Shown piece by piece: positions 820-23,295 of a stretch of DNA of 64,000 nt (the first letter of the stretch is position 1; each line of letters opens with the position of its first letter). This stretch comes from Neorhizobium galegae (GTDB taxonomy: Bacteria > Pseudomonadota > Alphaproteobacteria > Rhizobiales > Rhizobiaceae). Position numbers and translations under genes: made by a program. Where the stretch lies: positions 2,733,501-2,797,500 of the forward strand of contig NZ_CP090095.1 of the NCBI RefSeq assembly GCF_021391675.1, read 5' to 3'. The notes under the pieces were generated by a model, which did no database searches, was not told the origin of the DNA, and was given only the letters and a program-made list of their open reading frames with translations.

Positions 820-969
820 ATGAACGACAACATCATCAAATTCCGACGCCCGGAACCGCCGCCGCGAGAGCCGAATCCGCTGCTCCGCAAGTTGGCGGTT
901 GTTGCAGCCGTGATCGTGTGCCTTGTTCTCGCGTGGGCGTATTTCCAATTCCTCGGAAACCCGGCGTAA
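820..969 (+). CDS. Small single-pass membrane protein, 49 aa
   Basis: A short frame starts MNDNIIKFRRPEPPPREPN and continues into one hydrophobic helix (about residues 25-44) ending FLGNPA. The layout of a basic, proline-rich cytoplasmic N-terminus plus one membrane segment resembles small hypothetical proteins that I believe are common in rhizobia; I know no function. It stands alone between the sugar permease gene and the SARP regulator. No strong ribosome binding site is visible before the ATG, and a weak hairpin (AACCCGG/CCGGGTT at 958-978) overlaps the stop codon and could end the transcript. Existence is more likely than not, because the charge and hydrophobicity pattern is coherent. 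Confidence 0.55.
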   Translation: MNDNIIKFRRPEPPPREPNPLLRKLAVVAAVIVCLVLAWAYFQFLGNPA

Positions 970-1217: not shown

Positions 1218-3158
1218 ATGCTCGAAAATACGACGCTCAAAATCCGGTTGCTCGGTCGCCCTTCGCTTGAGTTGGACGGCGCGAGCATAGCGTTGCCGGA
1301 AAAAGCGTATTTTCTCTTTGCCGTCGTTGCAATGGCGCCCGGATTGACGGTCGACCGCGAAACGATACGGCGGCTTCTCTGGCCTTCCCACGACGCGGAG
1401 AAGCGTGCAAACAGCCTGCGTCAGCTTTTGGCACGCATCGCCAAGGCTGTCGGTCCGGATGCCCCGGCCATCCTTGTCACCGACGAAGAAGCGCTGAGGC
1501 TTGATTGCGATCGGTCCGACGTCGATCTCCTCGCCCTGATGGAGCCCGGTCCCCTCAGGGAAGAGGACTGGGACCTTGTTCGAGGCGAACTGCTCGAAGC
1601 CGTGGAGGCTCCGACCGGCGGCGCGGAAGACTGGTTATTGGACGCACGGCGCAAGGTCGGGGATTGGCGATCGAGCCACATCGAAAGCCTGCTGGCGATA
1701 TCGTCCCATCAGCAGTCCTCGTCATTGCCCTTGCTTGCCAACCGCCTGATCGAACTGGATGCCTCCCATGAGGGCGCCGCGCGGGCGTTGATGAAGTATC
1801 ATGTGGGCCATGGTGACTTCGCCGCCGCCCGCCAGGCCTATAGCCGATGCCGGGACCAGCTCAGGGCCGATTACGGTACGCCGCCGACACCTGAGACGGT
1901 TGGGCTCGCCCACGAACTCGGCATCCTGAGCCGGCCCGGCTCGGACCGCACGCCCGAAGCGGAGGAACGCCCAAAGGGTGTCATGCCGGCACAGCCGCGC
2001 GTGGTGATCCTTCCGCCCGAGACGATCGTTCAGGATGCGCTGGTCCAGCGCCTCGGCAGGGCTCTTTTGGAAGACGTCACGATCGGCCTCAGCCATCAGC
2101 GTGTTTTCAAGATCATCGCCGCCCATACGAGCTTTGAACTGCTCAATCGATCAGGCGATTCAAATCAGCGCCAGTCGGCCCTCAGTGACCTTCAGTTCGA
2201 CTATTCAGTGTTCGTGACGATCCAGGGCGAAGGCGACGAGATTTTTGCGACCTGCAGGCTGACGAGGGTCGGCACCGGCGAAGTACTCTGGGCCATCAAC
2301 CTGCCGCTCGACGTTCAGCAGATGAGGGCATCTTTCAGCCAGTTGGCGCGGCGTATTTCGATGTCGCTGACCGATGTCATCGAACGGCATGAAATCGCCA
2401 GGTCCCTCGATGATGTCGATCCCTCGGCCTACCGCCTCTATCTCGAGGGAAAGCGCTATCTGTCCGGCACCGACCTGCAGCATCTGCGTCAGGCGCGCAA
2501 ATGGTTCAAATCGGCGGTCAAGCGGTGTGACAGTTTTTCGCCGGCGCATGCCGGAATTTCACGCTCGCTCGGCATGGAATGGCTGGTTCGCGGCATGAAG
2601 GACAATGAGCTGCTGGATGTGGCCAATCAGTCCGCCCGCGCATCCCGCGATCTCGATCCCGGCAGCGGCCGCGCCTTCCGCGAGCTGGGCTTCATCTCCC
2701 TCTACCGCCGGCGTTTCGATGAAAGCCTGGATCTTTTTCAGGAGGCTCAGAACCTCAATCCGAGCGATGCGGACGTGTTAATCGATTATTCGGACGCGCT
2801 GTCGCATGCGGGCGACCTGGACAAGGCCCTCGATCTCGGGCTCGCGGCTTTCAAGCTGAACCCGCTGCCGCCGGATTATTACTACTGGATACTGGGCTCC
2901 ACCTATTACGTCCGCCAGGAATATTCGAAGGCGATCGACACCATCGACCCGGTCCGCACCAAACACGCCACCGCGCGGCTGCTTGCAGCCAGTCACGCGA
3001 TGGCAGGTGACATGCCTGCCGCGCGTAAATATGCGGCGATCGTCCGGGAAAATTTCCCCGATTTCCGCAGCGAGGACATCCGTTACTTCGTGCCGGACCG
3101 CGACCCGGCCCATGCCGAGCTTCTCATTCATGGCCTCCGGCTCGCCGGGCTGCCGTAA
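1218..3158 (+). CDS. SARP-type transcriptional regulator with BTAD, TolB-like and TPR regions
   Basis: A 646-residue cytoplasmic regulator. Residues about 8-100 form an OmpR-like winged helix of SARP type (LKIRLLGRPSLEL... LLWPSHDAEKRANSLRQLLARI). They are followed by a bacterial transcriptional activation domain (about 105-235, helical, with AARQAYSRCRDQLRADYGTPP-like features). Residues about 255-400 (PRVVILPPE...LARRISMSLTDVIERHE) resemble the TolB-like segment found between DNA-binding and TPR parts in CadC/HilA-like regulators, and about 405-640 read as TPR helices. It sits directly upstream of, and co-oriented with, the candidate RiPP precursor, ycaO and tfuA, and putative SARP-style direct repeats lie before both the precursor and ycaO. 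I infer that it activates this locus; the signal is unknown. The ATG at 1218 has no strong ribosome binding site. Confidence 0.85.
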   Translation: MLENTTLKIRLLGRPSLELDGASIALPEKAYFLFAVVAMAPGLTVDRETIRRLLWPSHDAEKRANSLRQLLARIAKAVGPDAPAILVTDEEALRLDCDRSDVDLLALMEPGPLREEDWDLVRGELLEAVEAPTGGAEDWLLDARRKVGDWRSSHIESLLAISSHQQSSSLPLLANRLIELDASHEGAARALMKYHVGHGDFAAARQAYSRCRDQLRADYGTPPTPETVGLAHELGILSRPGSDRTPEAEERPKGVMPAQPRVVILPPETIVQDALVQRLGRALLEDVTIGLSHQRVFKIIAAHTSFELLNRSGDSNQRQSALSDLQFDYSVFVTIQGEGDEIFATCRLTRVGTGEVLWAINLPLDVQQMRASFSQLARRISMSLTDVIERHEIARSLDDVDPSAYRLYLEGKRYLSGTDLQHLRQARKWFKSAVKRCDSFSPAHAGISRSLGMEWLVRGMKDNELLDVANQSARASRDLDPGSGRAFRELGFISLYRRRFDESLDLFQEAQNLNPSDADVLIDYSDALSHAGDLDKALDLGLAAFKLNPLPPDYYYWILGSTYYVRQEYSKAIDTIDPVRTKHATARLLAASHAMAGDMPAARKYAAIVRENFPDFRSEDIRYFVPDRDPAHAELLIHGLRLAGLP

Positions 3159-3253
3159 ACAGGCGTGAAAATGCCTGTCACGCTGGAATAACACCCGGTG
3201 TGGTCCTTTCTCTACGCAACGCAGCACACGCTGCCTATTAGCGGAGAGAAAGC
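3159..3253 (+). promoter_or_regulatory. Promoter region of the candidate precursor with putative SARP box
   Basis: The sequence GCCTGTCACGC occurs at 3173-3183 and again, exactly, at 3508-3518 before ycaO. Here the heptamer GTCACGC (3177-3183) is followed 11 bp later by ATAACAC (3188-3194), a degenerate second copy. An 11-bp period is the classical spacing of SARP heptamer repeats. The stretch also contains a small hairpin (ACAGGC 3159-3164 / GCCTGT 3173-3178) that could end the regulator transcript. Binding by the neighbouring SARP protein is inference. Confidence 0.45.
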
Positions 3254-3409
3254 ATGGAAACGAAGTTCAAGACCTCCAAGCCGGTTGAAACCACTGCCTC
3301 TGCCCCGACACTGCGGTTTTCCGCCGCTGCCGAAGCCGTGCTTGGCGGCCGGACCGAAATTGCGCCGAACGCGCTCTCTCAGGTCACGCATGCCATGAGA
3401 TATCAGTAA
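3254..3409 (+). CDS. Candidate RiPP precursor peptide, 51 aa
   Basis: This small frame is preceded by a good ribosome binding site (GGAGAG ending 8 bases before ATG). The peptide starts METKFKTSKPVETTAS, continues with an alanine-rich helical part (LRFSAAAEAVLGGRTEI) and ends APNALSQVTHAMRYQ. It has no cysteine, no signal peptide and no membrane segment. Its size, its position immediately upstream of ycaO and tfuA, and the hairpin between it and ycaO are what one expects of a RiPP precursor. The mid-region AVLGGRTEI resembles the AVLKSKTKV stretch that I recall from the trifolitoxin precursor TfxA; that is a remembered comparison, not an alignment. The last 10-14 residues are the likeliest core. 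Lack of Cys and few Ser/Thr argue against azoline formation and fit backbone thioamidation better. Confidence 0.65.
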   Translation: METKFKTSKPVETTASAPTLRFSAAAEAVLGGRTEIAPNALSQVTHAMRYQ

Positions 3410-3419
3410 TGAGCCTGAA

Positions 3420-3449
3420 AGCCCAAGGTGCCGACGGCTGCCTTGGGCT
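3420..3449 (+). terminator. Hairpin between precursor and ycaO (attenuator-like)
   Basis: Arms AGCCCAAGG (3420-3428) and CCTTGGGCT (3441-3449) pair perfectly around a 12-nt loop, 11 bases after the precursor stop. There is no T-run, so it is more likely a transcript-stabilising or partial-termination element. Such an element would let the precursor be made in excess of the enzymes, as is common in RiPP operons. Confidence 0.55.
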
Positions 3450-3507
3450 TAACCACGAGCCGCCAAGCAAAAGATCGTTCAAGCAGCCAGACGAGCCCCC
3501 TAAACAA

Positions 3508-3529
3508 GCCTGTCACGCCCAAGTCACGG
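3508..3529 (+). promoter_or_regulatory. Putative SARP direct repeat before ycaO
   Basis: GTCACGC at 3512-3518 and GTCACGG at 3523-3529 form a direct heptamer repeat with exactly 11-bp period, within a 170-bp gap between precursor and ycaO. The first copy is part of an 11-mer (GCCTGTCACGC) that also lies before the precursor. The spacing matches known SARP operators; the assignment to the regulator at 1218-3158 is inferred. Confidence 0.45.
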
Positions 3530-3581
3530 TGCTTTTGGTTTCTTCTCCGCTACAGACCCTTGGAGAGGACGATTCGACCAG

Positions 3582-4952
3582 ATGAGTTCGGCATCGCAAC
3601 CACTTTTGCAGACCCGGCAGTCGCTCGCCCAATCTCGCTTGAGGTCAGGGTCCCTTGAAATTCGGCCGCCGGAAACGATGATGCAGATCCAGTCATCGAC
3701 GCAGACGATCCAGACATTCGCAGCCTCGCTGACCCAGCGGGAGCAGGGTTTCAGCACGTATCATGACCGGCGCGTTTCGCCGGCGGAAACCTTCGACGCG
3801 ATCAGCCCGTTCTTCCGAGATCTCGGCATTACCCGGGTCGGCTTCCTGACCGGCCTCGACCGTGTCGGCATTCCCGTCGCCTTTGCGACACGGCCCAACA
3901 GCTACACTCTCTCCGTATTCCAGGGCAAAGGCGTCGATGCCGATGCCGCGCGCACCTCGGCCGCCATGGAGGCCTTGGAGACACGGGTCGCCGAAGTCGA
4001 ACCGGCGTCGCTCACCTGGGCGACTGTCAACGACGTCGCGGGCTCTGCGGCGGGGATGATCGATCTTCATTCGACCGCACGGTGTGTGCCCTCCGAAATT
4101 GGCGACCGCCAGATACCTTGGGTCCCCGGTCTGGATATCCTTTCCGGCAATCAAGTCATGGTGCCCTGGTGGCTTGCCGGAATGGATCACCGGGGCGAAC
4201 GGCCGGCCGGTTTCGAACAGTCCAGCGATGGTCTTGCATCCGGAAATACCCGCGCCGAGGCACTTCTGCACGGGCTCTGCGAACTCGTCGAGCGCGACGC
4301 CTGGACCCTTGTCCAGCTCAAATCCGAACAAGAATTGAATGCCTGCCTCGTCGATCCAGCCACGGTCGAGGATGCCTTGATCGACCTGCTGGTCGGCCGC
4401 CTCCGCGATGCAGGCATGCAGCTCCTCCTCCTCGACATGACGACAGATCTCCAGGTTTCGGCATTCCTGGCCGTGCTGATCCCGGACTCCACGGCCAAAC
4501 GGTCAGACCCGCGCTGGAGCCAGATTTGCGGCGGCTGCGGTTGCCATCCCGATCCGATACGCGCAATGCTGCGCGCCATCACCGAAGCGGCGCAGAGTCG
4601 TCTGACCGCGATTGCCGGCAGCCGCGACGATTTTTCGCCTCGCATCTATCAGCATATACGGGCGGATAACGCTCTCAGCCGCCTGGTCGCCCTGTCGTCG
4701 CTGGACAGGCGTCCGGTCCAGTATCGCGAGCTTGACGTAACTCGCCACTCCATCAACGGCACGATCGATCACATACTCGGTCGTCTCAGGCTTGCCGGCA
4801 TCAGGCAGGTGGTTGCGGTTCCCATGCAGGATGCGGGGCTCCCTGTATCGGTCGTCCGCGTCGTCGTTCCTGGCCTGGAAGTCGAACTTTCCGGACAATA
4901 TTTGCAGCTCGGTATCCGCGCTGCAAACGCCATAAGGAGGTCACGGCATTGA
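3582..4952 (+). CDS. YcaO-family ATP-dependent cyclodehydratase/thioamide synthetase component
   Basis: YcaO enzymes activate peptide backbone amides with ATP. The protein (456 aa from ATG 3582) carries the family motif Sx3Ex2E as S126-E130-E133 and a second acidic ATP/Mg site around E226, E234 and E237 (RAEALLHGLCELVERDA). It also has the N-terminal block GITRVGFLTGLDRVGIPVAF and a QGKG motif before the ATP site. The C-terminus ends IRRSRH and lacks the PxPxP tail of azoline-forming YcaO proteins. The gene overlaps tfuA by 4 bases, and YcaO-TfuA pairs are known to install thioamides (methyl-CoM reductase, thioviridamide-type peptides). I therefore infer peptide thioamidation of the upstream peptide. 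Translation could also start at the ATG pair 3678/3681, after a GGAAA; the extra 32 residues look unconserved. Confidence 0.9.
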   Translation: MSSASQPLLQTRQSLAQSRLRSGSLEIRPPETMMQIQSSTQTIQTFAASLTQREQGFSTYHDRRVSPAETFDAISPFFRDLGITRVGFLTGLDRVGIPVAFATRPNSYTLSVFQGKGVDADAARTSAAMEALETRVAEVEPASLTWATVNDVAGSAAGMIDLHSTARCVPSEIGDRQIPWVPGLDILSGNQVMVPWWLAGMDHRGERPAGFEQSSDGLASGNTRAEALLHGLCELVERDAWTLVQLKSEQELNACLVDPATVEDALIDLLVGRLRDAGMQLLLLDMTTDLQVSAFLAVLIPDSTAKRSDPRWSQICGGCGCHPDPIRAMLRAITEAAQSRLTAIAGSRDDFSPRIYQHIRADNALSRLVALSSLDRRPVQYRELDVTRHSINGTIDHILGRLRLAGIRQVVAVPMQDAGLPVSVVRVVVPGLEVELSGQYLQLGIRAANAIRRSRH

Positions 4953-5689
4953 AAGTGGTTTTTGTCGGACCGAGTCTCGGGTCTTCGACCCGCCAGATGA
5001 AGCAACGATTTCCCTCGCTGACCTTCCGCGGGCCTGCGGCGCGTGGCGACATTCTGAAGGCGGTCGAGGACGGCGCCAAGGCGATCGCGCTCATCGACGG
5101 TTATTTCGGCGAGTCCGCCTCCGTATGGCACAAGGAGATTCTGTATGCGCTGAGCTGCGATGTCTCCGTCGGCGGCGGCTCGAGCATGGGAGCGTTGCGC
5201 GCTGCCGAATGCGAGGCATTCGGCATGGTCGGCATCGGCAGGATATATTCCGATTATGCCGCCGGCCGGTTGATCGATGACGAAGCCGTCGCACTGATCC
5301 ACGGCCCCGAGGAGCTCGGTTGGATGCCTCTCTCGGTGCCGCGCGTCGATTACGAGGCGACAATCCGCAAGCTTGGGCGGATGGGGCTCATCTCGGCTGC
5401 TGAGCGTGAGAGATTTTTCCTTGCCGCCAATTTCATGCACTACACCGAGCGAACCTACCAGGCCATTCTCGAACGATGCGATTTCAGCGATCCTCAGCGC
5501 AGTGCAGTAATCCTTCACGACATCAAACGCCACCAAGTGGAATTGAAGCGTGAGGATGCGAGAGCCGTCCTCGTCTGGCTAAACGGCATCAGCAGTTCCA
5601 ACAAGCACTCCAAATGGACGTTCGCACAGACCGCCCATTGGGAAAAACTGCGCGACGAGGTCGACTCGGCGCAAGGATCCATGAAATGA
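4949..5689 (+). CDS. TfuA-like protein, YcaO partner
   Basis: TfuA proteins act with YcaO, most likely delivering sulfur or otherwise assisting thioamide formation; the name comes from trifolitoxin production in Rhizobium leguminosarum. The 246-aa protein begins KVVFVGPSLG and contains the conserved glycine/serine block VGGGSSMGALRAAEC, followed by GRIYSDYAAGRL and the D-E-A-V-A-L-I-H-G segment, all typical of the TfuA domain (about residues 1-160). A helical C-terminal part follows. The start is TTG at 4949, supported by an ideal AAGGAGG at 4934-4940 and by its overlap with the ycaO stop. It shares an ATGA overlap with the next gene, so the three genes are one translationally coupled unit. 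Confidence 0.9.
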   Translation: MKVVFVGPSLGSSTRQMKQRFPSLTFRGPAARGDILKAVEDGAKAIALIDGYFGESASVWHKEILYALSCDVSVGGGSSMGALRAAECEAFGMVGIGRIYSDYAAGRLIDDEAVALIHGPEELGWMPLSVPRVDYEATIRKLGRMGLISAAERERFFLAANFMHYTERTYQAILERCDFSDPQRSAVILHDIKRHQVELKREDARAVLVWLNGISSSNKHSKWTFAQTAHWEKLRDEVDSAQGSMK

Positions 5690-5934
5690 TTGATCTCGCA
5701 AATGACGTCGCCAGCAACGAATACGCCCGCCTGTTCCGCATGCTTTCCGCGGTCAACAGGGAAGCGGAATCGCTTCATCTCTCCACGGTCGTCCACCTGA
5801 CGAACATGGCACTCCTTCAACTCTCGCTCGATTGGGAGGGCGTCAGCCCCGAAAACGAGAGGAGCGTGAAACTGAATGCGATATTCCGCCACAAGACCAA
5901 GCTGGCCCTCGATGACGATAGTCCCAGGCCTTAA
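5686..5934 (+). CDS. Small protein, third gene of the ycaO-tfuA unit, unknown function
   Basis: The start ATG overlaps the tfuA stop (ATGA), giving an 82-residue acidic, largely helical protein: MIDLANDVASNEYARLFRML, then HLSTVVHLTNMALLQLSLDWEG, then KLNAIFRHKTKLALDDD. It has no cysteines, no membrane segment and no signal peptide. I do not recognise the family. Tight coupling to tfuA suggests a role in the same pathway, for example as precursor-binding partner, immunity factor or regulator. A longer in-frame start at 5614 lies inside tfuA and is not preferred. The gene ends 15 bases before the convergent XRE gene. Confidence 0.7.
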   Translation: MIDLANDVASNEYARLFRMLSAVNREAESLHLSTVVHLTNMALLQLSLDWEGVSPENERSVKLNAIFRHKTKLALDDDSPRP

Positions 5935-5948
5935 ACATCAGGGACCGA

Positions 5949-6377
5949 TCACTGGGCCGGTCGTCTTTCGATCTCGGCGAAAAGCGCTTCCGCCTCGGAT
6001 TCCTTTGCGGCAACCGCCTGAACCAGTTCCAGGATGCGTTTGCGAAGAACCGGCTTCGAAATGCTCATGAATGCCGTGCTCATCAGCAGCGCTTCATGAG
6101 TGAAATCGAATTGCGGGTCTTCGAGCTGATTGTCATTCGACGGCTCGACTGTCGGGATGCGGTCGAAGAACGCCACCATCTCGACCTTCAGCGCGGTTGC
6201 GATCTCCACCAGCTTGCCGACAGCAATCCGATTGATGCCGTTTTCATATTTCTGAAGCTGCTGAGACGTGATGCCCACATGGTGGGCAAGTTGCGGCTGC
6301 GTAAGTTTTCTCTCTCGCCTGTAGAGGCGGATCCGCTTTCCAACCTCTCTGTCGGCGGCATTCGGTGCTTTGCTCAC
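5949..6377 (-). CDS. XRE-family transcriptional regulator, 142 aa
   Basis: A cytoplasmic DNA-binding protein with an N-terminal Cro/C1 helix-turn-helix (about residues 11-66: VGKRIRLYRRERKLTQPQLAHHVGITSQQLQKYENGINRI) and a C-terminal helical region ending ALFAEIERRPAQ. This architecture is widespread in rhizobia, usually in many paralogues. The start is GTG at 6377. It is convergent with the RiPP operon and divergent from the catabolic operon at 6744. A perfect 9-bp inverted repeat sits 23 bases upstream of its start and is probably its own operator; no link to the RiPP genes can be shown. Confidence 0.9.
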   Translation of the reverse strand: MSKAPNAADREVGKRIRLYRRERKLTQPQLAHHVGITSQQLQKYENGINRIAVGKLVEIATALKVEMVAFFDRIPTVEPSNDNQLEDPQFDFTHEALLMSTAFMSISKPVLRKRILELVQAVAAKESEAEALFAEIERRPAQ

Positions 6378-6743: not shown

Positions 6744-7778
6744 ATGTCTCATTTCACACTGAATCGCCGCCGCTTCATCTCCAATGCCGCGGCCTTGGGC
6801 GGCCTTGCCGCCACCTCCAGCTTCCTCGGCATCCGGGCCGGCAACGCCAAGGACGTGGCCAAAGTGCGCATGCAGCTCGGCTGGCTTGCCTCGAACGGCG
6901 TGCTCGGCGAAGTCGCCGCCATGAAGAAGGGTTTTTTCCAGGAACAGGGTATCGAGCTCGAGATCGTCCCCGGCGGACCGAGCGTCGATGGCGTCGCGGG
7001 CGTGGCATCGGGCCAGTCCGCAACCGGCCAGATTTCCTCCAGCCCGTCCGTCATGCTGGCGCGTTCGGCAGGCCTGCCGGTCAAGGCCTTCCTGTCCGGC
7101 TACCAGAAGCACCCATTCACTTATTTCTCTCTGAAGAACAAGGCGATCAAGACCCCGAAGGACATGATCGGCAAGACGATCGCCACCCAGCCGACCGCCT
7201 TCATCCTGCTGCGCGCACTTCTCGCCCAGAACGGCATCGCCGAGGACCAGGTGAAGATGGTCAACATGGGTTCGGACATGAACCAGCTGATCACCGGCCA
7301 GGCGGATGCGGTCACCGGCTGGCTCACCAATGTCAACGCTCTCGATGTGCTCGGCGACAACCGGGTCGACATGATGCTCTGGGACAGCGGCCTGCAGCTC
7401 TACGCCAACGTCTACTACACGACCGACGACCAGATCGCCAAACACTCCGACGTTCTCGAACGCTTCACCCGCGCCGCAGCCAAGGGCTGGGGTTACGTTC
7501 GCAACAATCAGAAGGAAGCGGTCGAGATGCTCTGCGAGGCCTATCCGATCCTCGACAAGGCAAGCGAAATGAAGGCCGTGGTCCCGTGCGTCGACTTCTC
7601 CTTCGGTGCCACCACCAAGGCATCCGGCTGGGGCACAATGTCGCGTGAAAACTGGGCGGCGCAGATCAAGGCCTATGCCGATCTCAAGCAGTTCAAGGGT
7701 ACCGTTCCGACGGTCGACGACGTCGCGAACTTCTCCATCCTCGAAGCCACCAGCGACATCCGCAAACAGGTGGGGTGA
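6744..7778 (+). CDS. ABC transporter substrate-binding protein, NitT/TauT (SsuA-like) type, Tat signal
   Basis: The periplasmic receptor of an importer (344 aa). The N-terminus [20 protein letters not shown] is a twin-arginine signal (NRRRFIS) with a following hydrophobic stretch and a likely cut after the NAK region near residue 39. The mature part begins [40 protein letters not shown], the NMT1/THI5-like fold of nitrate/taurine/sulfonate-type receptors, and continues with [14 protein letters not shown] and [11 protein letters not shown]. It is the first gene of a long operon; the ATPase gene begins at or just after its stop. The substrate is unknown. The downstream CoA-transferase and hydratase suggest a carboxylate or a nitrogen heterocycle. 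Confidence 0.9.
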
Positions 7779-7783
7779 TAGCC

Positions 7784-8599
7784 ATGTTAGGAACGGCGAA
7801 GTTGATGCCGAACGTTCCCCAGACCGAACCGGCAGCCACGGCGGTTTCGATCCGAAACCTCTCCGTCCGGTTCGGTGACAGGAACAACGAGTTCACGGCC
7901 CTTTCCGATGTTTCCGTGGAAATACAAGAAGGGGCCTTCGTGACCATGCTAGGCCCGTCCGGCTGTGGAAAATCGACCCTGCTCAGATGCGTGGCGGATC
8001 TCGTCCACATCAGCGACGGTTCGATTTCCGTCTTTGGCCGCAGCCCGCAGGAGGCTCGCGAGAGCCGCGACTTCGCCTTCGTTTTCCAGGACGCGACGCT
8101 GCTTCCCTGGCGGAACGTGCTCGACAATGTCCGACTGCCGCTGGAAGTCGGAAAACACGCCCAGACCGGCGACCATGCGGACCCGCATGAACTGCTGGCC
8201 ATGGTCGGACTGAAGGGGCGCGAAAATGCGCTCCCTCACGAGCTCTCGGGCGGCATGCGCCAGCGCGTGGCAATTGCCCGGGCGCTGATCACGCGGCCGC
8301 GCATCCTTCTGATGGACGAGCCCTTCGGGGCGCTCGACGAGATCACCCGCGACCGACTGAACGAGGAACTGCTGCGCGTCTGGCAGGAAACGGGAACGAC
8401 GATCCTGTTCGTCACCCATTCCATTCCGGAGGCGGCCTTCCTCGGCCAGAACGTGCTGATGCTCCAGGCCCACCCGGGCCGCGTCAAGGAGTTCATGAAG
8501 GTCGACCTGCCCTTCCCGCGTTCGCTTGCCGTGCGTGACACCGTTGAATTCATCGGCGTCACCGCGCATCTGCGCCGCCTTCTGGAGGAATGCCTGTGA
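7784..8599 (+). CDS. ABC transporter ATP-binding protein, NitT/TauT type
   Basis: The cytoplasmic ATPase of the same importer (271 aa from ATG 7784). Walker A is GPSGCGKST, the signature motif is [15 protein letters not shown], Walker B is [13 protein letters not shown], and the switch histidine lies in LFVTHSI. The body is SsuB/TauB-like. A GTG at 7775 overlapping the upstream stop is an alternative start, but it adds only three residues. The permease start overlaps its end (ATG 8590), so receptor, ATPase and permease are coupled. Confidence 0.93.
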
Positions 8600-9423
8600 G
8601 CCACGTCGTTTCCTCCACCCGCAAGACCGAGGCCGATCGCAAGATCGCGCTTCTCGATGCGACCGCCGGCGTATTCGCCAAACATATGCCGGCGATCGCA
8701 GCCGCCGTCGGGCTCGTCGTCCTCTGGCAGTTCGTCGTCTGGTTCTTCAAGATCCCGACCTTCATGGCCCCGAGCCCTGTCGATGTCGCCTACGCCTTCC
8801 GTGACAACGCCGGGATCCTCTGGACCAACATGCTGCCGACGATCCTCGAGGCTTTCCTCGGCTTCGTCTTCGGCAATCTCGTCGCCATCCTTCTGGCGAT
8901 CTGGTTCGTCCACAGCGCGACGGCGGAAAAAGCCTTCTACCCGATCGCCGTGTTCATCAAGGCGATCCCGATCATTGCGCTCGCCCCGATCCTGGTGCTG
9001 ATCTTCGGCAACGGGCTTGCGCCAAAGATCATCATCGCCGGGTTGATCTGCTTCTTCCCGACACTGGTCAACATGGTCCAGGGCCTGAAATCCGCGAGCC
9101 CCGCCATGCTCGACCTGATGCGGGTGCTTTCCGCCAGCAACACGGAAATCCTCTGGAAGGTGCGGCTGCCGAGTTCGATGCCGTTCCTGTTCGCGGCACT
9201 GAAGATCGCCGCGACCAGCAGCGTCATGGGCGCCATCGTCGCCGAATGGATCGGCTCGAGCTTCGGCCTTGGGGCTCTGATCATCGAGGCTACCTACAAT
9301 TTCCGCTCGCCCCTGCTCTACGCAACCGTCGTGATCGCCGCGGTCCTCGCCGTCGTCCTCTTCTTCATCGTCTCGGTGATCGAAGCCCGGATGATCCGCT
9401 GGAAGCCGGCCGGATCGCACTGA
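8590..9423 (+). CDS. ABC transporter permease, NitT/TauT type
   Basis: An inner-membrane permease of 277 aa with about six helices. The first spans residues about 33-50 ([18 protein letters not shown]), and the binding-protein-dependent transport domain includes [44 protein letters not shown], the ATPase-docking loop. The last segment ends [13 protein letters not shown]. It overlaps the ATPase gene; GTG 8596 is an equally good start (GTGA overlap). A 55-base gap follows before the FAD oxidoreductase. Confidence 0.92.
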
Positions 9424-9478
9424 GCCCAACACACTGAGCCAACTGTCCTCAGGCCCAACTCTTTGGGAGTTTGAACCA

Positions 9479-10837
9479 ATGCAACAGACAATTCTTCAGG
9501 CGGCGCGCAACGTCGCAGTGGTCGACCGTTCCGATGTGGTCGTGGTCGGCGGAGGACCGGCAGGCATTTCCGCGGCCGTTTCCGCGGCCCGCAATGGCGC
9601 CAAGGTGACCCTTCTCGAGCGCTACCCCTATGTCGGCGGACTTGCCGCCGGCGGCATGGTGCTGGTGCTCGACGACATGATCAACAACCTCGAAATTACC
9701 GTGCAGGGCATCTGCATGGAGATGATCGAGCGGATGAAGAAATGGAACCTCTGCGTCACGCCAACCGGCCGCGACCGCGAACTCGACATCCGCGAAACGC
9801 CGGAAGCCTGGCGGCGCTGGGCGCGCTGGGGCCTGTTCGATTTCCACACCCAGTCCATGCCGCACCCCATCTGCTTTTCCGCCGCCTTCGACCCCGACGG
9901 CTTCAAGCGCGCCTCTTATGACGTGCTGACCGAAGCCGGCGTCAAGCTTCGGACCCATAGCTGGTTCTCCTCCGCGATCATGGAAGGCAAGACCATCAAG
10001 GGCGTCATCTGCCAAACCAAGTCCGGCATGGAAGCGATCCTCGGCGATGTCGTCATCGACACGACCGGCGACCTCGATGTCGCGGCCTCTGCCGGCGCCT
10101 CGCATGTGGAATCCAACTTCATCCTGACCACCGTCTCCCGCTGGGGCGGCGTCGATACGGAAGCCGCCGAGCGTTTCGAATTCGAGGAGCCGGAAGCCTT
10201 CAAGAAGATTGACCACGAGGCCAAGCGCCTGATCGGCGGCTGCTGGTCCTTCTGGTGGCTGAAGACCCCGCTGCCGGGCGTCGTCTGGCTCAACTGCCCG
10301 CATATGCCGAACCTCTCCGGTCTCAAGACCGAGGACCTGACCAAGGCCGAACTCGAAGGCCGCAACCGCATCGCCCGCCTGCTCGATTTCACCCGCGAAA
10401 AGATGCCCGGCTTCGAAAAGGCCTATGTGGTCGATTTCGCGCCGCAGACCGGCGTGCGCCAGACCCGGCTGCTCGAAGGCGAATATGTCGTCACCAAGGA
10501 CGACGTGATGAACCGCATCCACTTCTCCGACACCGTCTGCCGCGGCCGCGACTATTACACGCCCTACCGGTCGATGCTGCCACGCGAGGTCGACCAGCTG
10601 ATCGTCGCCGGACGTCACTACTCGGCGACACCCCAGGCTCAGAAGTCGAGCCGCGAAATCCCGCCCTGCATGGCGATGGGCGAAGCTGCAGGCGTTGCCG
10701 CCGTCGTGGCGCTCAATGCCGGAACCACCGTTCGGAAAGCCGATATCGGCAAGATCCAGAAACAGATGCGGGCCCAGGGAGCCGATCCCGGCGATATCCC
10801 GTCCGACAATGCAACATTCCTGGAGGCTGCGGAATGA
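9479..10837 (+). CDS. FAD-dependent oxidoreductase (FAD_oxidored family)
   Basis: A 452-aa soluble flavoenzyme. The dinucleotide-binding Rossmann motif DVVVVGGGPAGISAAVSAARNGAKVTLLER lies at residues about 19-48, followed by YVGGLAAGGM. Near the C-terminus are the blocks RQTRLLEGEYVVTKDD and LIVAGRHYSATPQAQKSSREIPPCMAMGEAAGVAA, the conserved FAD-closing segment of this family (related to tricarballylate and succinate-type dehydrogenases). It lies between the importer and a CoA-transferase and overlaps the latter by 4 bases, so it probably oxidises the imported compound or its CoA ester. The ferredoxin encoded at 15120-15458 could be its electron partner. The substrate is unknown. Confidence 0.85.
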   Translation: MQQTILQAARNVAVVDRSDVVVVGGGPAGISAAVSAARNGAKVTLLERYPYVGGLAAGGMVLVLDDMINNLEITVQGICMEMIERMKKWNLCVTPTGRDRELDIRETPEAWRRWARWGLFDFHTQSMPHPICFSAAFDPDGFKRASYDVLTEAGVKLRTHSWFSSAIMEGKTIKGVICQTKSGMEAILGDVVIDTTGDLDVAASAGASHVESNFILTTVSRWGGVDTEAAERFEFEEPEAFKKIDHEAKRLIGGCWSFWWLKTPLPGVVWLNCPHMPNLSGLKTEDLTKAELEGRNRIARLLDFTREKMPGFEKAYVVDFAPQTGVRQTRLLEGEYVVTKDDVMNRIHFSDTVCRGRDYYTPYRSMLPREVDQLIVAGRHYSATPQAQKSSREIPPCMAMGEAAGVAAVVALNAGTTVRKADIGKIQKQMRAQGADPGDIPSDNATFLEAAE

Positions 10838-11991
10838 ATTCTCTCCCACTCGACGGCGTCCGCGTGATCGACTTCACGCAGGTCATGCTCGGCCCCTGCT
10901 GCACCCAGACGCTCGCCGATTACGGCGCTGAAGTCATCAAGATCGAGAAGGCGAAGATCGGCGACCTGTCGCGCTGGTCGCTCGGTTCCGACCCTGACGG
11001 CCTCAACAACCCGGTCTTCTGCTCGCTGAACCGCAACAAGAAGAGCCTGGCACTCGATCTGAAGCTCACCGAAGCCCGCGACGCCGTGCTGGCGCTGATT
11101 GCCGGCGCCGACGTGGTGGTCAACAACTTCCGCCCCGGCGTGATGGAACGCATGGGCTTCGGTTACGACGACCTGAAGAAGATCAACAAGCGGCTGATCT
11201 ACGCGGTCGGCACCGGCTTCGGCCTCACCGGCCCCTACCAGCACAAGGGCGGCCAGGATATTCTCGCCCAGGCGCTTTCCGGCGTCATGCGCCGCAAGTC
11301 GGATAGCGCCCATCCGACTTCGATCTACGCCACCCCGCTCGCCGACTATTCCGCCGGTATGCATCTCGTTCAGGGCATCCTGCTGGCGCTCCTGCACCGG
11401 GAAAAGACCGGCGAAGGCCAGCAGGTTGCGGTCAGCCTCTACAATTCCATGCTCGCCATGCAGATGCAGGAAGGTGCCGCGCACATGATGCGCGAGAAGG
11501 ACCTGAACTGGGGCGCCTTCCCGCTGACCGGCGTGTTCGACACCACCGATGGCGCGATCGTCATGGTCGGCGCCTTCAAGCAGAACCCGCTGCAGGACAT
11601 CTGCAACGCGCTCGAAATCGAAGATCTGTCGGCCCAGCCGCGCTACAAGGATTTCGATTCCCAGATGGCGCATCGCCCGGAACTGCAGGAGATTTTTCGC
11701 GCGAATTTTGCCAGGAACAGCAATGCCCATTGGCTGAAGCGCCTGGAAGAGGTCGATATTCTCTGCGCGCCGGTGCGCAACCTCGCCGAAGCGCTGCAGG
11801 ACCCGCAGACAGTCATCAACAAGATGATCCTCGAAGCCGGCGAGACCGCAGCCGGTCCGATACGCCTGATCGGTTCCCCGATCGACATGTCGGCGGCCCC
11901 GGTTACGGTCCGCATCGCGCCGCCGAGCCTCGGCCAGCACAATGACGAGATCCTCGCTTCGCTGGAAGCTCGCCGCGGAGACGCGGCATGA
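10834..11991 (+). CDS. CaiB/BaiF-type (class III) CoA-transferase
   Basis: It transfers CoA between carboxylates. The 385-aa protein starts MNSLPLDGVRVIDFTQVMLGPCCTQTLADYGAEVIKIEK, the family hallmark. It has FSLNRNKKSL-like and NNFRPGVMERMGFGYDDL blocks and the catalytic-aspartate region ATPLADYSAGMHLVQGILLALLHREKTGEGQQV (Asp in LADY). The ATG at 10834 overlaps the FAD enzyme stop; a longer open frame upstream is an overlapping shadow. It is coupled to the enoyl-CoA hydratase gene by another 4-base overlap. Together they suggest activation of a carboxylic acid followed by hydration of an unsaturated CoA ester. Confidence 0.92.
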   Translation: MNSLPLDGVRVIDFTQVMLGPCCTQTLADYGAEVIKIEKAKIGDLSRWSLGSDPDGLNNPVFCSLNRNKKSLALDLKLTEARDAVLALIAGADVVVNNFRPGVMERMGFGYDDLKKINKRLIYAVGTGFGLTGPYQHKGGQDILAQALSGVMRRKSDSAHPTSIYATPLADYSAGMHLVQGILLALLHREKTGEGQQVAVSLYNSMLAMQMQEGAAHMMREKDLNWGAFPLTGVFDTTDGAIVMVGAFKQNPLQDICNALEIEDLSAQPRYKDFDSQMAHRPELQEIFRANFARNSNAHWLKRLEEVDILCAPVRNLAEALQDPQTVINKMILEAGETAAGPIRLIGSPIDMSAAPVTVRIAPPSLGQHNDEILASLEARRGDAA

Positions 11992-12764
11992 CCGTGGGAT
12001 TTTCCGTCGAGAACCGTGTGGCGCGGGTCACGCTCGACCGCCCGGACCGCATGAACGCCGTCGATGCCGCGACCGAAAAGGAACTCGACGCCATCTGGAC
12101 CGAGATCGAGGCCCGCGACGACATCTCCTGCGTGGTCCTGACCGGCAGCGGCCAAAAGGCCTTCTGCACCGGTGCCGACCTCAAGGGCGGCGCCACCAAG
12201 AGCGGGCTAGAATACTGGGCGGAAAGCCGCACCAACGGTTTCGGCGGCCTCGCCTTCCGCAAATCGCTGGACGTGCCGGTCATCGCCCGCGTCAACGGTT
12301 ATGCGCTCGGTGGCGGCTTCGAGATGGTGCTCGGCTGCGACGTCGTGATTGCCGCCGATACCGCCAAGTTCGGCCTGCCGGAGGCACGCGTCGGCCGCAT
12401 GCCGCTCGACGGCGGCATGGTACTGCTGCAGCGTAAAATCCCCCATAACCTCGCCATGGCCGTGATGCTGACCGGCCGGCAGTTCACCGCAGCCGAAATG
12501 CAGGGCTTCGGCATCGTCAACGAGACCGTGCCCTTCGACGAACTGGATGCCGCCGTCGACCGATGGGTAAGCGATATCGTCGCCTGTGCACCGCTGTCGC
12601 TGAAGGCGATCAAGCAGACAGTCAACCGCACCGGTCATCTCAGCCCCGCCGAAGCTCAAGGCCTGCGCACCCCCGCGCTGATCCGTGCGCTGCAGAGCGA
12701 AGACGCCGTCGAAGGCGTTACGGCCTTCCGCGAAAAGCGCGCTCCGGTTTGGCAGGGCCGGTAG
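11988..12764 (+). CDS. Enoyl-CoA hydratase/isomerase family protein
   Basis: A crotonase-fold enzyme of 258 aa. The oxyanion-hole segment FCTGADLKGG and the second one ALGGGFEMVLGCDVVIAAD are present, followed by the catalytic loop FGLPEARVGRMPLDGGMVLLQ with a glutamate at the expected place. The C-terminal helix carries SLKAIKQTVNR. It overlaps the CoA-transferase gene by 4 bases and is followed by the LysR gene 29 bases later. The likely role is hydration of an enoyl-CoA made by the upstream enzymes; the specific substrate is unknown. Confidence 0.92.
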   Translation: MTVGFSVENRVARVTLDRPDRMNAVDAATEKELDAIWTEIEARDDISCVVLTGSGQKAFCTGADLKGGATKSGLEYWAESRTNGFGGLAFRKSLDVPVIARVNGYALGGGFEMVLGCDVVIAADTAKFGLPEARVGRMPLDGGMVLLQRKIPHNLAMAVMLTGRQFTAAEMQGFGIVNETVPFDELDAAVDRWVSDIVACAPLSLKAIKQTVNRTGHLSPAEAQGLRTPALIRALQSEDAVEGVTAFREKRAPVWQGR

Positions 12765-12793
12765 GCATGGTATGAATTTCAGGATCTTGGGGG

Positions 12794-13723
12794 ATGAGTA
12801 TGCACGCCAGTATCCTGAAATATTTCGTCGAAGTCGCGCGCGCGGGCTCGATCCGCAAGGCCTCCGAAGAACTGCATGTGGCGACCTCTGCCGTCAGCCG
12901 CCAGATTCGCAAGCTTGAGGACGAACTCGGCACGCCGCTGTTCGAACGGTTTTCCGATGGCCTGCGCCTCACCTCCGCCGGCAAGGTGGTGCTGAAGCAC
13001 GCCAAGGAGACGATCCACCACTACGAGATCATGAAATCCGATCTCGGCGATCTCCAGGGCAAGCGCACCGGCCGCGTTCATATAGCCTGTCTCGACAGTC
13101 TGGCCGTGCAGTTCCTGCCGGAATTCGTGATGGGATTCCACCGCAAGAACCCGGCCGTCGATTTCCGCATCCGTGCCGACAATTTCAACAACATCTTCCA
13201 TTTCGTCGCCGACGGCGATTGCGATATCGGCATCACCTTCGATCTCGCCCGCCCCCACGATATCAAGCTGGTGCATGGCGTGCGCATGCCGCTGATGGTG
13301 ATCGTCGCCAAACATCATCCGCTGGCCCGCCAGAAGAGTGCGACGCTGCAGGAGTGCGCCCAGTTCAAGCTGCTGCTGCAACTCGACAACGAGGTGATGA
13401 GTTCGATGATCGCCGTCGAACTCGCCTCGCTCGACCGCGTCGGCCGCACGCTTGTCGCCACCAATAACCAGATGATGCTGAAGCCGCTGATCCTGTCCGG
13501 CGAAGGCGTCGCCTTCTTCACTCCGCTCGGGCTGCTGAAGGAACTGAAGGCCGGCGACGTGGTCGCCCTGCCGATCGCCGGCTCCCGCCTGCAGAACATG
13601 GAGGTAGGCATCGTCGCGCCCCATAACCGTCAGCTCACCCATGCGACGGAAGCCGTGATCGAGGCGCTCAGCGTCGATCTCGAAAAATTCAGCAACCAGA
13701 TTGCGGAGGTCATCAAGCGGTGA
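12794..13723 (+). CDS. LysR-family transcriptional regulator inside the catabolic operon
   Basis: A 309-aa LysR protein: the N-terminal winged helix covers residues about 4-62 (ILKYFVEVARAGSIRKASEELHVATSAVSRQIRKLEDELGTPLFERFSDGLRLTSAG) and a periplasmic-binding-like effector domain follows (RVHIACLDSLAVQFLPEFVMGFHRKNP...). It is unusual in lying inside the operon on the same strand, with its stop overlapping the next start (GTGA at 13720-13723), so it would be co-expressed with the catabolic genes. It is the natural candidate to bind the GTTGC/GCAAC boxes at 6599 and 15504. Confidence 0.92.
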   Translation: MSMHASILKYFVEVARAGSIRKASEELHVATSAVSRQIRKLEDELGTPLFERFSDGLRLTSAGKVVLKHAKETIHHYEIMKSDLGDLQGKRTGRVHIACLDSLAVQFLPEFVMGFHRKNPAVDFRIRADNFNNIFHFVADGDCDIGITFDLARPHDIKLVHGVRMPLMVIVAKHHPLARQKSATLQECAQFKLLLQLDNEVMSSMIAVELASLDRVGRTLVATNNQMMLKPLILSGEGVAFFTPLGLLKELKAGDVVALPIAGSRLQNMEVGIVAPHNRQLTHATEAVIEALSVDLEKFSNQIAEVIKR

Positions 13724-15123
13724 CATCGAACGAGGACACGCGTTTCCTACAGCATCCGGGCCATCAAAAAGCCCTGCGTGGCGATGCGGCACAAGCCGCC
13801 CTTCCCGCTCTCGCCTCGGCCATTCCGCTTTCCGGCGGCGAGTTGCTTCTGCCGATGCCGGTCAACGCCCATGACCACGGCTACGGCATCCGCACGCTCG
13901 ATTTCGGCAGCCTCGACGACGCGCTCGAAACCTGGATCCCAACGATGCGGCTGCGGCCCCGCACCGATGCCTATCTCGAAGCCCTCGTCGCATTCGGGCG
14001 CCTCGCAAAGACTGGCGTCGCGGCGACCATCCACTGCCACAATTCCCTGAATGCGGCCCGCATGGTCGACGAGGCCCTGGAGGTGATCCGGGCGGCCAGG
14101 GATATGGGCATCCGGCTCGGCCTCTCCTGCCCACTGCTCGACCACGACGCCTGGGCTTATGACGGCGGCCCTGAGCGCTTGAAGCCCTTCCTCAGCCCAG
14201 CGGACTGGGAGGCTCTTTCCCCGCTTGCGCCTCGATATGCCCCGTTCCGCGATCAGCTCGCCGCCGCTGATGCCGTTGCCGCTGCCAATTCCAATCCGCT
14301 GGTCGATGTCCAATACGGCCCGATCGGCCCGCAATGGTGCTCGAACGCCCTGCTCGAAGCGATCGCCGAGGCCTCCGCCGCCAACGATCGCCGTATCCAC
14401 ATGCACCTGCTCGAAAGCCCACGACAGAGAGCATGGCTGGACCGTCGCTTCCCGCAGGGCATCGTCCGCTATCTCGACGAGATCGGCTTCCTCTCGTCGC
14501 GCCTGGCGGTCGCCCACGGCGTTCAGCTCCGGCCGGACGAATACGAATTGCTGGCCGAACGTGGCGTCCAGCTCGTCTCCAATCCCTCCGCCAACCTTCG
14601 CCTGCGCTCCGGCACCGCGCCGCTCGCGGACGCCGTCAAGCGCGGCCTGCGCTTCGGCATCGGGCTCGACGGCAGCGCCTTCGACGACGACCAGGATCTC
14701 TGGCGCGAAATGCGGCTCCTCTATTTCCTGCATGGTGGACGAGGGCTCGAACGGAGCTTCACGGCGGCCGGCATCTTCGACGCCGCGATCCGCACCGGCG
14801 CAACTGTCGTCAACGCCCCGCTCGGAGAGGACTTTACGGTCATCGACTACGAGGCGCTGATCGCCGACAGCGTCTTCGACGATCTCGATGAGGCCGAAGT
14901 CTTGCTGAACCGCATGTCCGCCGCCCATGCCAAGGCCGTCTATGTCGCCGGCCGGCCGGTCATGCGGGACGGCAGGCTCGTGAATGTCGATTTCGATGCG
15001 GCCCGCGAGGAACTGCTGGCGCAGGCCAAGGCCGACCTGCCGCGCCTCACCATCGAGCGGGAAAGATGCGGCAAACTGATCACTGCCACCCGCGCCTATT
15101 ATGGAAGCTGGACGAACGCCTAG
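13720..15123 (+). CDS. Amidohydrolase-family protein (chlorohydrolase/cytosine-deaminase-like)
   Basis: A 467-aa metal-dependent hydrolase of the TIM-barrel amidohydrolase superfamily. The first metal-binding motif is PVNAHDHGYG (HxH) near residue 50. Others are TIHCHNSL, HMHLLES (metal His), the VAHGVQL block and the GIGLDGSAFDDDQD block, which matches the GTDG-type aspartate motif of ATZ/TRZ-like deaminases. The C-terminal sheet includes AKAVYVAGRPVMRDGRLVNVD. It starts with GTG overlapping the LysR stop. As the last gene of the operon it probably deaminates or opens a cyclic nitrogen compound. Its TAG stop overlaps the ferredoxin stop within the tetramer CTAG. Confidence 0.85.
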   Translation: MTSNEDTRFLQHPGHQKALRGDAAQAALPALASAIPLSGGELLLPMPVNAHDHGYGIRTLDFGSLDDALETWIPTMRLRPRTDAYLEALVAFGRLAKTGVAATIHCHNSLNAARMVDEALEVIRAARDMGIRLGLSCPLLDHDAWAYDGGPERLKPFLSPADWEALSPLAPRYAPFRDQLAAADAVAAANSNPLVDVQYGPIGPQWCSNALLEAIAEASAANDRRIHMHLLESPRQRAWLDRRFPQGIVRYLDEIGFLSSRLAVAHGVQLRPDEYELLAERGVQLVSNPSANLRLRSGTAPLADAVKRGLRFGIGLDGSAFDDDQDLWREMRLLYFLHGGRGLERSFTAAGIFDAAIRTGATVVNAPLGEDFTVIDYEALIADSVFDDLDEAEVLLNRMSAAHAKAVYVAGRPVMRDGRLVNVDFDAAREELLAQAKADLPRLTIERERCGKLITATRAYYGSWTNA

Positions 15124-15458
15124 TGAGCCGCCTCACGCACGGGCGCGGCTGTCACCGCCGGGTGATCTACGGCCCGCGTCCGGCTTTTGTCCCAGCCGCC
15201 GGGTGATCCCAACCCGGTCACATCGGGCCCGAAATAATCCCGGTTGACGGGAATGAACGCCATCTGTGCCTCGGTCGCCTCCTCGTCATAAGCGATGGCA
15301 TCGACCGGACAGATGGAGAGACAGAGGCCGCAATTGATGCACTCGTCCGGATGGATATAGAACATCCGCCCGCCCTCGTAGATGCAGTCGACGGGACAGG
15401 CTGCGGTGCATGCACCGTCCTTCACGTCGATACAGGGTTCGGTGATGATATAGGCCAT
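15120..15458 (-). CDS. Seven-iron ferredoxin (3Fe-4S + 4Fe-4S), FdxA-like
   Basis: A 112-aa soluble electron carrier. The N-terminal part has cysteines at positions 9, 17, 21 and 25 (PC, GAC, AACPVDC). Position 12, which is Cys in ordinary 8Fe ferredoxins, is Val, the pattern of a 3Fe-4S cluster. The second motif DECINCGLCLSICPVDAI binds a 4Fe-4S cluster. The tail (about residues 75-112) is longer than in FdxA. It faces the amidohydrolase gene tail-to-tail with overlapping stops, and diverges from adenine deaminase. A role as redox partner for the FAD oxidoreductase is inferred from proximity. Confidence 0.88.
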   Translation of the reverse strand: MAYIITEPCIDVKDGACTAACPVDCIYEGGRMFYIHPDECINCGLCLSICPVDAIAYDEEATEAQMAFIPVNRDYFGPDVTGLGSPGGWDKSRTRAVDHPAVTAAPVREAAH

Positions 15459-15503
15459 CGGATCGTTTGCCTCTCATTGTATCGAGGCACTATCCCAAAC
15501 CTA

Positions 15504-15558
15504 AGCGTTGCTGAAAAGCAGCATATTTCGCTTGGAGAGTTCGAATTTCAGCAACGCT
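15504..15558 (+). promoter_or_regulatory. Inverted 13-bp repeat in the ferredoxin/ade divergent promoter
   Basis: AGCGTTGCTGAAA (15504-15516) and its exact reverse complement TTTCAGCAACGCT (15546-15558) are spaced 42 bp centre to centre, four helical turns. This fits two regulator-bound half sites in the 196-bp region between the divergent ferredoxin and ade genes. The first eight bases, AGCGTTGC, match the box at 6599 before the catabolic operon. Confidence 0.5.
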
Positions 15559-15654
15559 CCAATAATCTTCCCGCCCTATTTGGCGCTTCCTTGCCTCGGC
15601 GGCTTTCCCTACAATCCCGCCTGTCCTCCCCTAAGTCCTGGAAATGAGATTTTC

Positions 15655-17457: not shown

Positions 17458-17469
17458 CCGGCGGCGGGG

Positions 17470-22321: not shown

Positions 22322-22334
22322 GAACAGCTCCTTT

Positions 22335-22388: not shown

Positions 22389-22389
22389 G

Positions 22390-23292: not shown

Positions 23293-23295
23293 ACA

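What the first reader, a model, noticed from the sequence alone, without database searches (positions are those of the whole stretch)
1218..5934. Minimal TfuA-YcaO RiPP locus with its own SARP-type activator
Seen: a SARP/BTAD regulator, a 51-codon peptide, YcaO, TfuA and an 82-aa protein in one orientation, with 4-base overlaps between the last three. Known: YcaO-TfuA pairs make thioamides in methyl-CoM reductase and thioviridamide-type peptides, and TfuA is named from trifolitoxin. Inferred: this is a thioamidated-peptide pathway lacking any dehydrogenase, protease, methyltransferase or exporter, which makes it unusually simple and probably undescribed.
Basis: partly seen in the sequence, partly recalled or inferred. 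Interest (0 to 1): 0.9.

Follow-up and report, generated by a model that had tools for sequence, protein, structure and literature searches.

The report
SARP-controlled thioamide peptide locus
A small conserved gene set in Neorhizobium and Rhizobium appears to make a sulphur-modified peptide under its own regulators; the enzyme pair is a known kind, but the peptide, a partner protein and the control circuit look unstudied and partly outlive the enzymes, which makes a role in regulation worth testing.

Summary
Window 1218-5934 holds a SARP regulator, a 51-aa peptide, YcaO, TfuA and an 82-aa ORF; a sixth gene, an Xre-type regulator on the minus strand (5949-6377), belongs with them. Among 49 public loci of the same TfuA clade plus the window, the SARP and the peptide recur in 50 of 50, the 82-aa family in 49. 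The YcaO and TfuA motifs are intact, so peptide thioamidation is the best-supported chemistry (not shown). "Unusually simple" is not new: precursor + YcaO + TfuA suffice for thiovarsolin B (PMC6511847), and TfuA clusters in Rhizobium were mined in bulk (PMC8120280). New here: (1) 11-bp direct repeats of the SARP-operator type precede the peptide and, separately, YcaO or the 82-aa gene; (2) the window's genome carries a second, paralogous system with a different peptide (ending FSGVFDG; tandemly repeated cores in some relatives); (3) 96 of 119 relatives of this SARP in 394 Rhizobiaceae genomes lie within 6 kb of a TfuA hit, and of the other 23, 12 keep the peptide and 4 keep Xre + SARP + operator + small helical gene only. 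In these loci the SARP, not the enzyme pair, is the hub. A signalling role is possible, unproven.

The parts
1218..3158 (+). SARP-type regulator: winged helix, BTAD, alpha/beta domain, TPR superhelix
   Evidence: Pfam BTAD and TPR; AlphaFold2 pLDDT 82.9; tblastn hit in 49 of 49 public clade-A loci
3178..3193 (+). operator-like 11-bp direct repeat upstream of the peptide gene
   Evidence: 50 of 50 clade-A loci have one in the SARP-YcaO gap
3221..3234 (+). GCAGC-N4-GCTGC inverted repeat between operator and ribosome-binding site
   Evidence: regex match in 39 of 50 clade-A loci; covariation term 0
3254..3409 (+). 51-aa candidate precursor peptide, conserved C-terminal part ending THAMRYQ
   Evidence: 50 of 50 loci, alignment A1, dN/dS
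3419..3450 (+). hairpin after the peptide gene, terminator- or processing-like, without a clear T run
   Evidence: -23.3 kcal/mol, z -3.27, 0 of 200 shuffles as good
3513..3528 (+). second operator-like direct repeat, upstream of YcaO; found in the Neorhizobium-type loci (window, L001-L008)
3582..4952 (+). YcaO, ATP-dependent backbone-modifying enzyme
   Evidence: PF02624 218 bits; aligned to 6pe3 and 6ci7
4949..5689 (+). TfuA, sulphur-delivery partner of YcaO
   Evidence: PF07812 128 bits; 6xp8 E 8.9e-29
5686..5934 (+). ORF82, small helical-hairpin protein, probably part of the regulatory cassette
   Evidence: alignment A2, model, weak profile match to the clade-B small ORF
5949..6377 (-). 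Xre-type HTH regulator belonging to the locus
   Evidence: PF01381 42.9 bits; on the minus strand downstream in 48 of 49 public clade-A loci (L046 differs)

Best explanation
A SARP-activated locus for a small thioamidated peptide. The SARP binds 11-bp direct repeats and switches on the peptide gene and the YcaO-TfuA-ORF82 unit (inferred from operator-like sites, not shown). TfuA supplies sulphide, and YcaO activates a backbone amide of the 51-aa peptide with ATP and replaces O by S, most likely within its conserved C-terminal part (chemistry inferred from characterised YcaO-TfuA pairs; position inferred from conservation). No dedicated protease or exporter was recognised, so general peptidases trim the product or it acts in the cytosol. 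ORF82 is a SARP-controlled helical-hairpin protein of the regulatory cassette, and the Xre gene is a second regulator; together they probably tune the circuit (inferred). What the product acts on is unknown.
For: SARP, peptide and YcaO beside TfuA in 50 of 50 clade-A loci, which were chosen by TfuA; independently, the peptide profile hits 8 of 394 Rhizobiaceae genomes, each with a TfuA hit about 1.5-1.9 kb away. YcaO motifs SAAMEALE, ELVERDAW and LRAITEAAQSR align with those of MJ1094. Direct repeats in the SARP-YcaO gap in 50 of 50 (simulated gap: one or more in 55 of 5000, two in 0 of 5000); a second before ORF82 homologues in 40 of 41 of L009-L049 and before the small ORF in 31 of 32 clade-B loci, there with TANNNT 21-22 nt downstream counted 25 times over 29 distinct sites. 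SARPs bind heptameric direct repeats, classically 11-bp units (PMC10972967, passages). Clade-B peptides show tandem C-terminal repeats in L059, L060, L061, L064, the mark of a repeated core as in thiovarsolin.
Against: No product, mass shift or binding data. At the clade-A peptide promoter no TANNNT sits 12-35 nt downstream (0 of 47 distinct sites), nor at the pre-YcaO site (0 of 9). The own-genome scan for one form of the repeat gives 13 hits against 14 for the reversed control, so the motif alone does not define a regulon. In clade B the repeat is absent from the SARP-YcaO gap (0 of 30). Seven SARP-peptide loci lack YcaO and TfuA and five have YcaO without TfuA nearby, so thioamidation is not obligatory for keeping a clade-B peptide. 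54 of 150 listed TfuA hits have no such SARP within 6 kb (not examined). The clade-A C-terminus has no conserved Gly, unlike clade B.
Confidence: 0.6

Rival explanations
1. Peptide-regulator signalling circuit: the (thioamidated) peptide is an intracellular ligand of its own SARP, whose TPR superhelix reads it, giving autoinduction or feedback.
Against: TPR matches are generic and many proteins tie. Large SARPs commonly end in TPR. No exporter or importer recognised. Peptide distances track SARP best, but so do those of TfuA and YcaO, so no specific co-evolution. Four cassettes keep SARP and small ORF without a peptide.
Confidence: 0.18
2. Narrow-spectrum bacteriocin against related rhizobia, with ORF82 as immunity protein.
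For: TfuA is named after trifolitoxin production (recalled); 8 of the 60 plasmid records listed label the TfuA 'toxin'; bacteriocin clusters are often regulated (recalled).
Against: No exporter recognised; nearly invariant C-terminus within Rhizobium (3 variants of the last ten residues among 21); ORF82-like genes occur without peptide or enzymes, odd for immunity.
Confidence: 0.12
3. YcaO-TfuA modifies another protein and the 51-aa gene is only a small regulator or structural peptide.
For: YcaO also thioamidates folded proteins: McrA and uL16 (PMC13063428, abstract and passages). Clade-B peptides persist without the enzymes.
Against: A peptide gene was found in 30 of 32 clade-B and 50 of 50 clade-A TfuA loci; NCBIfam McrA-type cut-offs are not reached; tandem repeats in peptide C-termini fit a core.
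Confidence: 0.1

Closest known systems
Thiovarsolin cluster varAYT(O), Streptomyces varsoviensis (PMC6511847, passages)
   Same: precursor, YcaO and TfuA with no specific protease in the cluster; repeated cores, as in some clade-B relatives
   Different: different peptide; varO, varL, varP, varS have no counterpart recognised here; 'SARP' occurs 0 times in that text
TfuA-related gene clusters of Rhizobium mined by Malit et al. 2021 (PMC8120280, abstract, passages, section 9 parts 1-2 of 3)
   Same: very probably includes relatives of this locus (over 500 Rhizobium clusters)
   Different: no peptide of this type or ORF82 is described in the parts read; 'SARP', 'BTAD' and 'LuxR' occur 0 times in the main text; supplements not seen
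McrA-glycine thioamidation pair (TIGR03266, NF033432)
   Same: best NCBIfam matches of YcaO and TfuA
   Different: 210.6 of 365 and 179 of 235.2 bits, below both cut-offs
RaS-RiPP/Rgg-SHP circuits of streptococci (search listing only)
   Same: small modified peptide beside a TPR-containing regulator
   Different: there a separate SHP pheromone and an Rgg regulator; here a SARP winged helix and no exporter recognised
Trifolitoxin operon (recalled)
   Same: rhizobial, YcaO plus peptide, TfuA name
   Different: azoline-type with dehydrogenase and membrane proteins, none recognised here

Membership tests
TfuA-YcaO thioamidated RiPP locus | YcaO with intact ATP-binding motifs | tested here: met
   PF02624 218 bits; motif columns shared with 6pe3
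TfuA-YcaO thioamidated RiPP locus | adjacent TfuA | tested here: met
   4-base overlap; PF07812 128 bits over cut-off 30
TfuA-YcaO thioamidated RiPP locus | conserved short precursor gene beside them | tested here: met
   50 of 50 clade-A loci
TfuA-YcaO thioamidated RiPP locus | thioamide in the product | not testable with these tools
   needs mass spectrometry
Thiovarsolin family | repeating core in the precursor | tested here: not met
   no repeat in the clade-A peptides aligned; repeats only in 4 clade-B relatives. One published member is itself non-repeating, so this feature is not strict
McrA thioamidation equivalogs | score over NCBIfam cut-off | tested here: not met
Azoline RiPPs such as trifolitoxin | cyclodehydratase partner or dehydrogenase in the locus | tested here: not met
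   no such Pfam hit in the locus; none among the flanking genes scanned
SARP regulators | N-terminal winged helix plus BTAD | tested here: met
   BTAD 29.7 bits over 22.1; model has a strand-helix winged-helix order at 7-102. Pfam's Trans_reg_C did not match at E 0.01
SARP regulators | 11-bp spaced direct repeats upstream of targets | tested here: met
SARP regulators | binding and activation | not testable with these tools
   needs EMSA or reporter
RRNPP peptide receptors | TPR domain that binds an imported linear peptide | tested here: inconclusive
   TPR fold present; ligand binding untested
RRNPP peptide receptors | HTH_3-type DNA-binding domain fused to TPR | tested here: not met
   the SARP carries a BTAD-linked winged helix; the HTH_3 protein is a separate gene

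The most novel reading that the evidence does not exclude
A Gram-negative peptide-regulator circuit in which a thioamidated ribosomal peptide is the ligand of a SARP/TPR activator, with the small helical protein as its SARP-induced brake: the peptide-SARP pair is the core and YcaO-TfuA a modifier that can be lost or act in trans.
Probability: 0.15. Interest if true: 0.85.

Novelty: new variant of a known kind. Interest (0 to 1): 0.55.

Why it matters
In 2021 over a thousand TfuA-YcaO clusters were counted in Proteobacteria while all known products came from Actinobacteria (PMC8120280, section read). Complete loci of this type lie on pRL11 of Rhizobium johnstonii 3841 (L043) and pRLN2 of R. leguminosarum Norway (L026), and a TfuA relative in R. 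etli CFN 42, organisms with good genetics, so product and role can be tested directly. It also offers a case where regulator and peptide outlast the enzymes, which bears on whether some modified peptides are regulators, not weapons.

Tried and rejected
Regulon scan with one form of the repeat (it matches only the first of the two window sites): no excess over the reversed pattern, 13 against 14. Co-evolution of peptide with SARP: apparent (beta 0.64, permutation p 0.002, 29 loci; L072 dropped for poor overlap, L050 and L074 left out beforehand) but TfuA and YcaO show the same preference for SARP, the longest protein, so it is not specific. ORF82 fold: helical hairpin confident at residues 11-50, third helix weak, mean pLDDT 71.9; no PDB match under E 0.001, so a winged-helix precursor-binding element is not indicated by the model, nor firmly excluded. 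ORF82 against clade-B small ORF: probability 43.7, E 2.4e-4, suggestive only. The SARP's C-terminal half resembles the CadC periplasmic domain among many TPR hits; no AfsR-type structure was among the rows shown. RNA covariation of the 5' inverted repeat: covariation term 0. Peptide in plasmid records by tblastn at E 0.001: no match, a sensitivity limit, since plasmid-borne clade-A loci carry it (L026, L043). Empty site in the genus: seven relatives have both flanks and no peptide hit; the flanks are on different contigs in six and about 180 kb apart in the seventh (G204), so no clean empty site. Hidden exporter: the flank genes shared by 8 of 13 loci looked like a possible transporter set but are nadA, nadB-like, nadC and an NrtR-type regulator. 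SARP-TfuA linkage used the 150 TfuA rows listed, a list that was cut, and all 119 SARP rows. L120 has its SARP at a contig edge and cannot be judged; I count it among the 7 SARP-only loci.
Full report
WHAT IS THERE. The five genes are where the finding puts them and both 4-base overlaps are real. Domain scans give BTAD and TPR, YcaO and TfuA, and nothing for the peptide and the 82-aa ORF. A sixth gene, an Xre-type HTH protein at 5949-6377 on the minus strand, belongs to the set. When 13 divergent clade-A loci were compared with the window, SARP, YcaO and TfuA matched in 13 of 13 and the HTH gene in 12 of 13; the peptide and most ORF82 homologues fall under that script's 100-aa limit; ORFs antisense to these genes also match; no flanking gene is shared with all. 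The commonest shared flank, in 8 of the 13, is nadA, a nadB-like flavoprotein, nadC and an NrtR-type regulator; it is within reach in 30 of 49 public clade-A loci and lies at 19936-23295 in the window. The window's genes from 6744 to 18867 are an SsuA/TauA-like ABC transporter and catabolic genes.

RELATIVES. A TfuA search of one genome for each of 84,980 species kept 80 loci of 216. L001-L049 form clade A (this system); L050-L080 form clade B, a paralogous system with order HTH-SARP-peptide-YcaO-TfuA (L050 has TfuA but neither SARP nor YcaO beside it). The window's own genome has both: a second TfuA on contig 2 with its own HTH, SARP, a 72-aa peptide and YcaO. In clade A the peptide recurs in 50 of 50 loci (window included); in 23 aligned sequences R21, A26, N39 and A47 are invariant. 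ORF82 relatives were found by tblastn in 48 of 49 public loci, not L046. In the protein collection the sources that name relatives of either family call them hypothetical or uncharacterized (one UniRef entry says Flagellin), and the organisms shown are Rhizobiaceae or Aureimonas; the peptide search scored only its best 8000 candidates. The peptide profile hits 8 of 394 Rhizobiaceae, 10 of 57 of the window's genus and 5 of 397 genomes drawn from the order.

SELECTION. Pooled dN/dS is 0.06-0.19 for the peptide, 0.08-0.12 for ORF82, 0.06-0.27 for TfuA. In 21 Rhizobium peptides of 47 aa, codons 2-14 have pN/pS 0.62 and the three later segments 0.12-0.15, with 3 variants of the last ten residues.

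OPERATORS. A direct repeat T[ACG]AC[GA]-N6-T[ACG]AC[GA] lies in the SARP-YcaO gap of 50 of 50 clade-A loci and 0 of 30 clade-B loci. In simulated gaps of the window's composition one or more appear in 55 of 5000, two in 0 of 5000. Window and L001-L008 have a second copy before YcaO; in L009-L049 a second copy instead stands right after TfuA, before the ORF82 homologue, in 40 of 41 (not L046). In clade B a copy (pattern widened to allow C at the first base) stands after TfuA, before the small ORF, in 31 of 32 (not L074; own second locus included), followed by TANNNT at 21-22 nt counted 25 times over 29 distinct sites. The clade-A peptide promoters lack such a TANNNT (0 of 47 distinct), the pre-YcaO sites too (0 of 9), and the sites before ORF82 have one at 33-35 nt counted 15 times over 38. 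SARPs are described as binding heptameric direct repeats, classically 11-bp units (PMC10972967, passages).

THE REGULATOR OUTLIVES THE ENZYMES. With the SARP profile at E 1e-80, 99 of 394 Rhizobiaceae have a match and TfuA is in 123 of 394. Of 119 SARP hits 96 lie within 6 kb of a listed TfuA; of the 150 TfuA hits listed 96 have this SARP and 54 do not; those 54 were not examined. The 23 SARP exceptions were all fetched and examined: 5 have peptide and YcaO but no TfuA nearby (L107, L108, L117, L118, L119); 7 have the peptide and no enzyme (L110-L114, L124, L125), L114 also keeping HTH, operator and small ORF; 4 have Xre, SARP, operator and the small helical ORF but no peptide, YcaO or TfuA (L105, L106, L115, L116), three of them in genomes without any TfuA hit; 7 have the SARP alone (one at a contig edge). 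So in these loci the small ORF goes with the regulators, not with the enzymes, and the peptide goes with the SARP. All 23 are clade-B-like or more distant; no such orphan was seen for the window's clade A.

PROTEIN MODELS. The SARP model (pLDDT 82.9, 14 sequences) has a winged-helix region, BTAD helices, an alpha/beta domain and a TPR superhelix. Its matches include designed TPRs and the CadC periplasmic domain and, in the second look, many tied TPR proteins, Rap with its pheromone among them; this shows fold, not function. ORF82 is a helical hairpin with no informative match. Its profile aligns without gaps to the clade-B small ORF over 43 columns, probability 43.7.

HOW IT MOST LIKELY WORKS. 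Shown by sequence: gene set, conservation, operator-like repeats, intact enzyme motifs. From characterised families: YcaO-TfuA thioamidate a peptide backbone, TfuA releasing sulphide from a ThiS-like carrier (PMC13063428, passage). Inferred: SARP activates peptide and enzyme units; the thioamide lies in the conserved C-terminal part; ORF82 and Xre tune the circuit. Not shown: product, site, activity.

NOVELTY. The kind is known: varA, varY and varT suffice for thiovarsolin B (PMC6511847, passages). Rhizobium TfuA clusters were mined in bulk (PMC8120280, abstract, passages, section 9 parts 1 and 2 of 3), and a genome paper reports an antiSMASH TfuA cluster in a Rhizobiaceae isolate (PMC7356062, passages). 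No paper of the library holds TfuA with BTAD; the one paper with TfuA, Rhizobium and SARP uses SARP for an algorithm. Searches listed no study of this peptide, judged by titles and abstract starts in an open-licence library only. I therefore rate it a new variant of a known kind.

Noticed in passing
L096 4202-8982 (own genome, contig 2): Second, paralogous HTH-SARP-peptide-YcaO-TfuA-small ORF locus in the same genome, with a different 72-aa peptide ending FSGVFDG.
   Followed up: yes
L107, L108, L117, L118, L119: SARP-peptide-YcaO loci without TfuA beside them, all in one genus whose genomes carry TfuA elsewhere.
   Followed up: partly
L105, L106, L115, L116: Xre-SARP-operator-small helical ORF cassette with no peptide, YcaO or TfuA.
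   Followed up: partly
L056, L060, L064, L070, L071 (after TfuA): Operator variant GCAACG in place of GTCACG, both halves changed together, suggesting altered SARP specificity.
   Followed up: no
window 3221-3234: Inverted repeat GCAGC-N4-GCTGC between operator and start of the peptide gene, seen by regex in 39 of 50 clade-A loci; other stems seem to stand there in some of the rest.
   Followed up: partly
window 820-969: 49-aa ORF with one likely membrane helix, found by tblastn in L001-L007 only among the 80 loci.
   Followed up: no
L059, L060, L061, L064: Clade-B peptides with tandem C-terminal repeats (two or three units), a natural test of the core.
   Followed up: partly
window 19936-23295; L009 9905-14270; L026 3-3803: NAD biosynthesis genes nadA, nadB-like, nadC with an NrtR-type regulator lie near clade-A loci on either side (30 of 49 public loci within the fetched stretch), a shared neighbourhood without an obvious link to the peptide.
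   Followed up: partly
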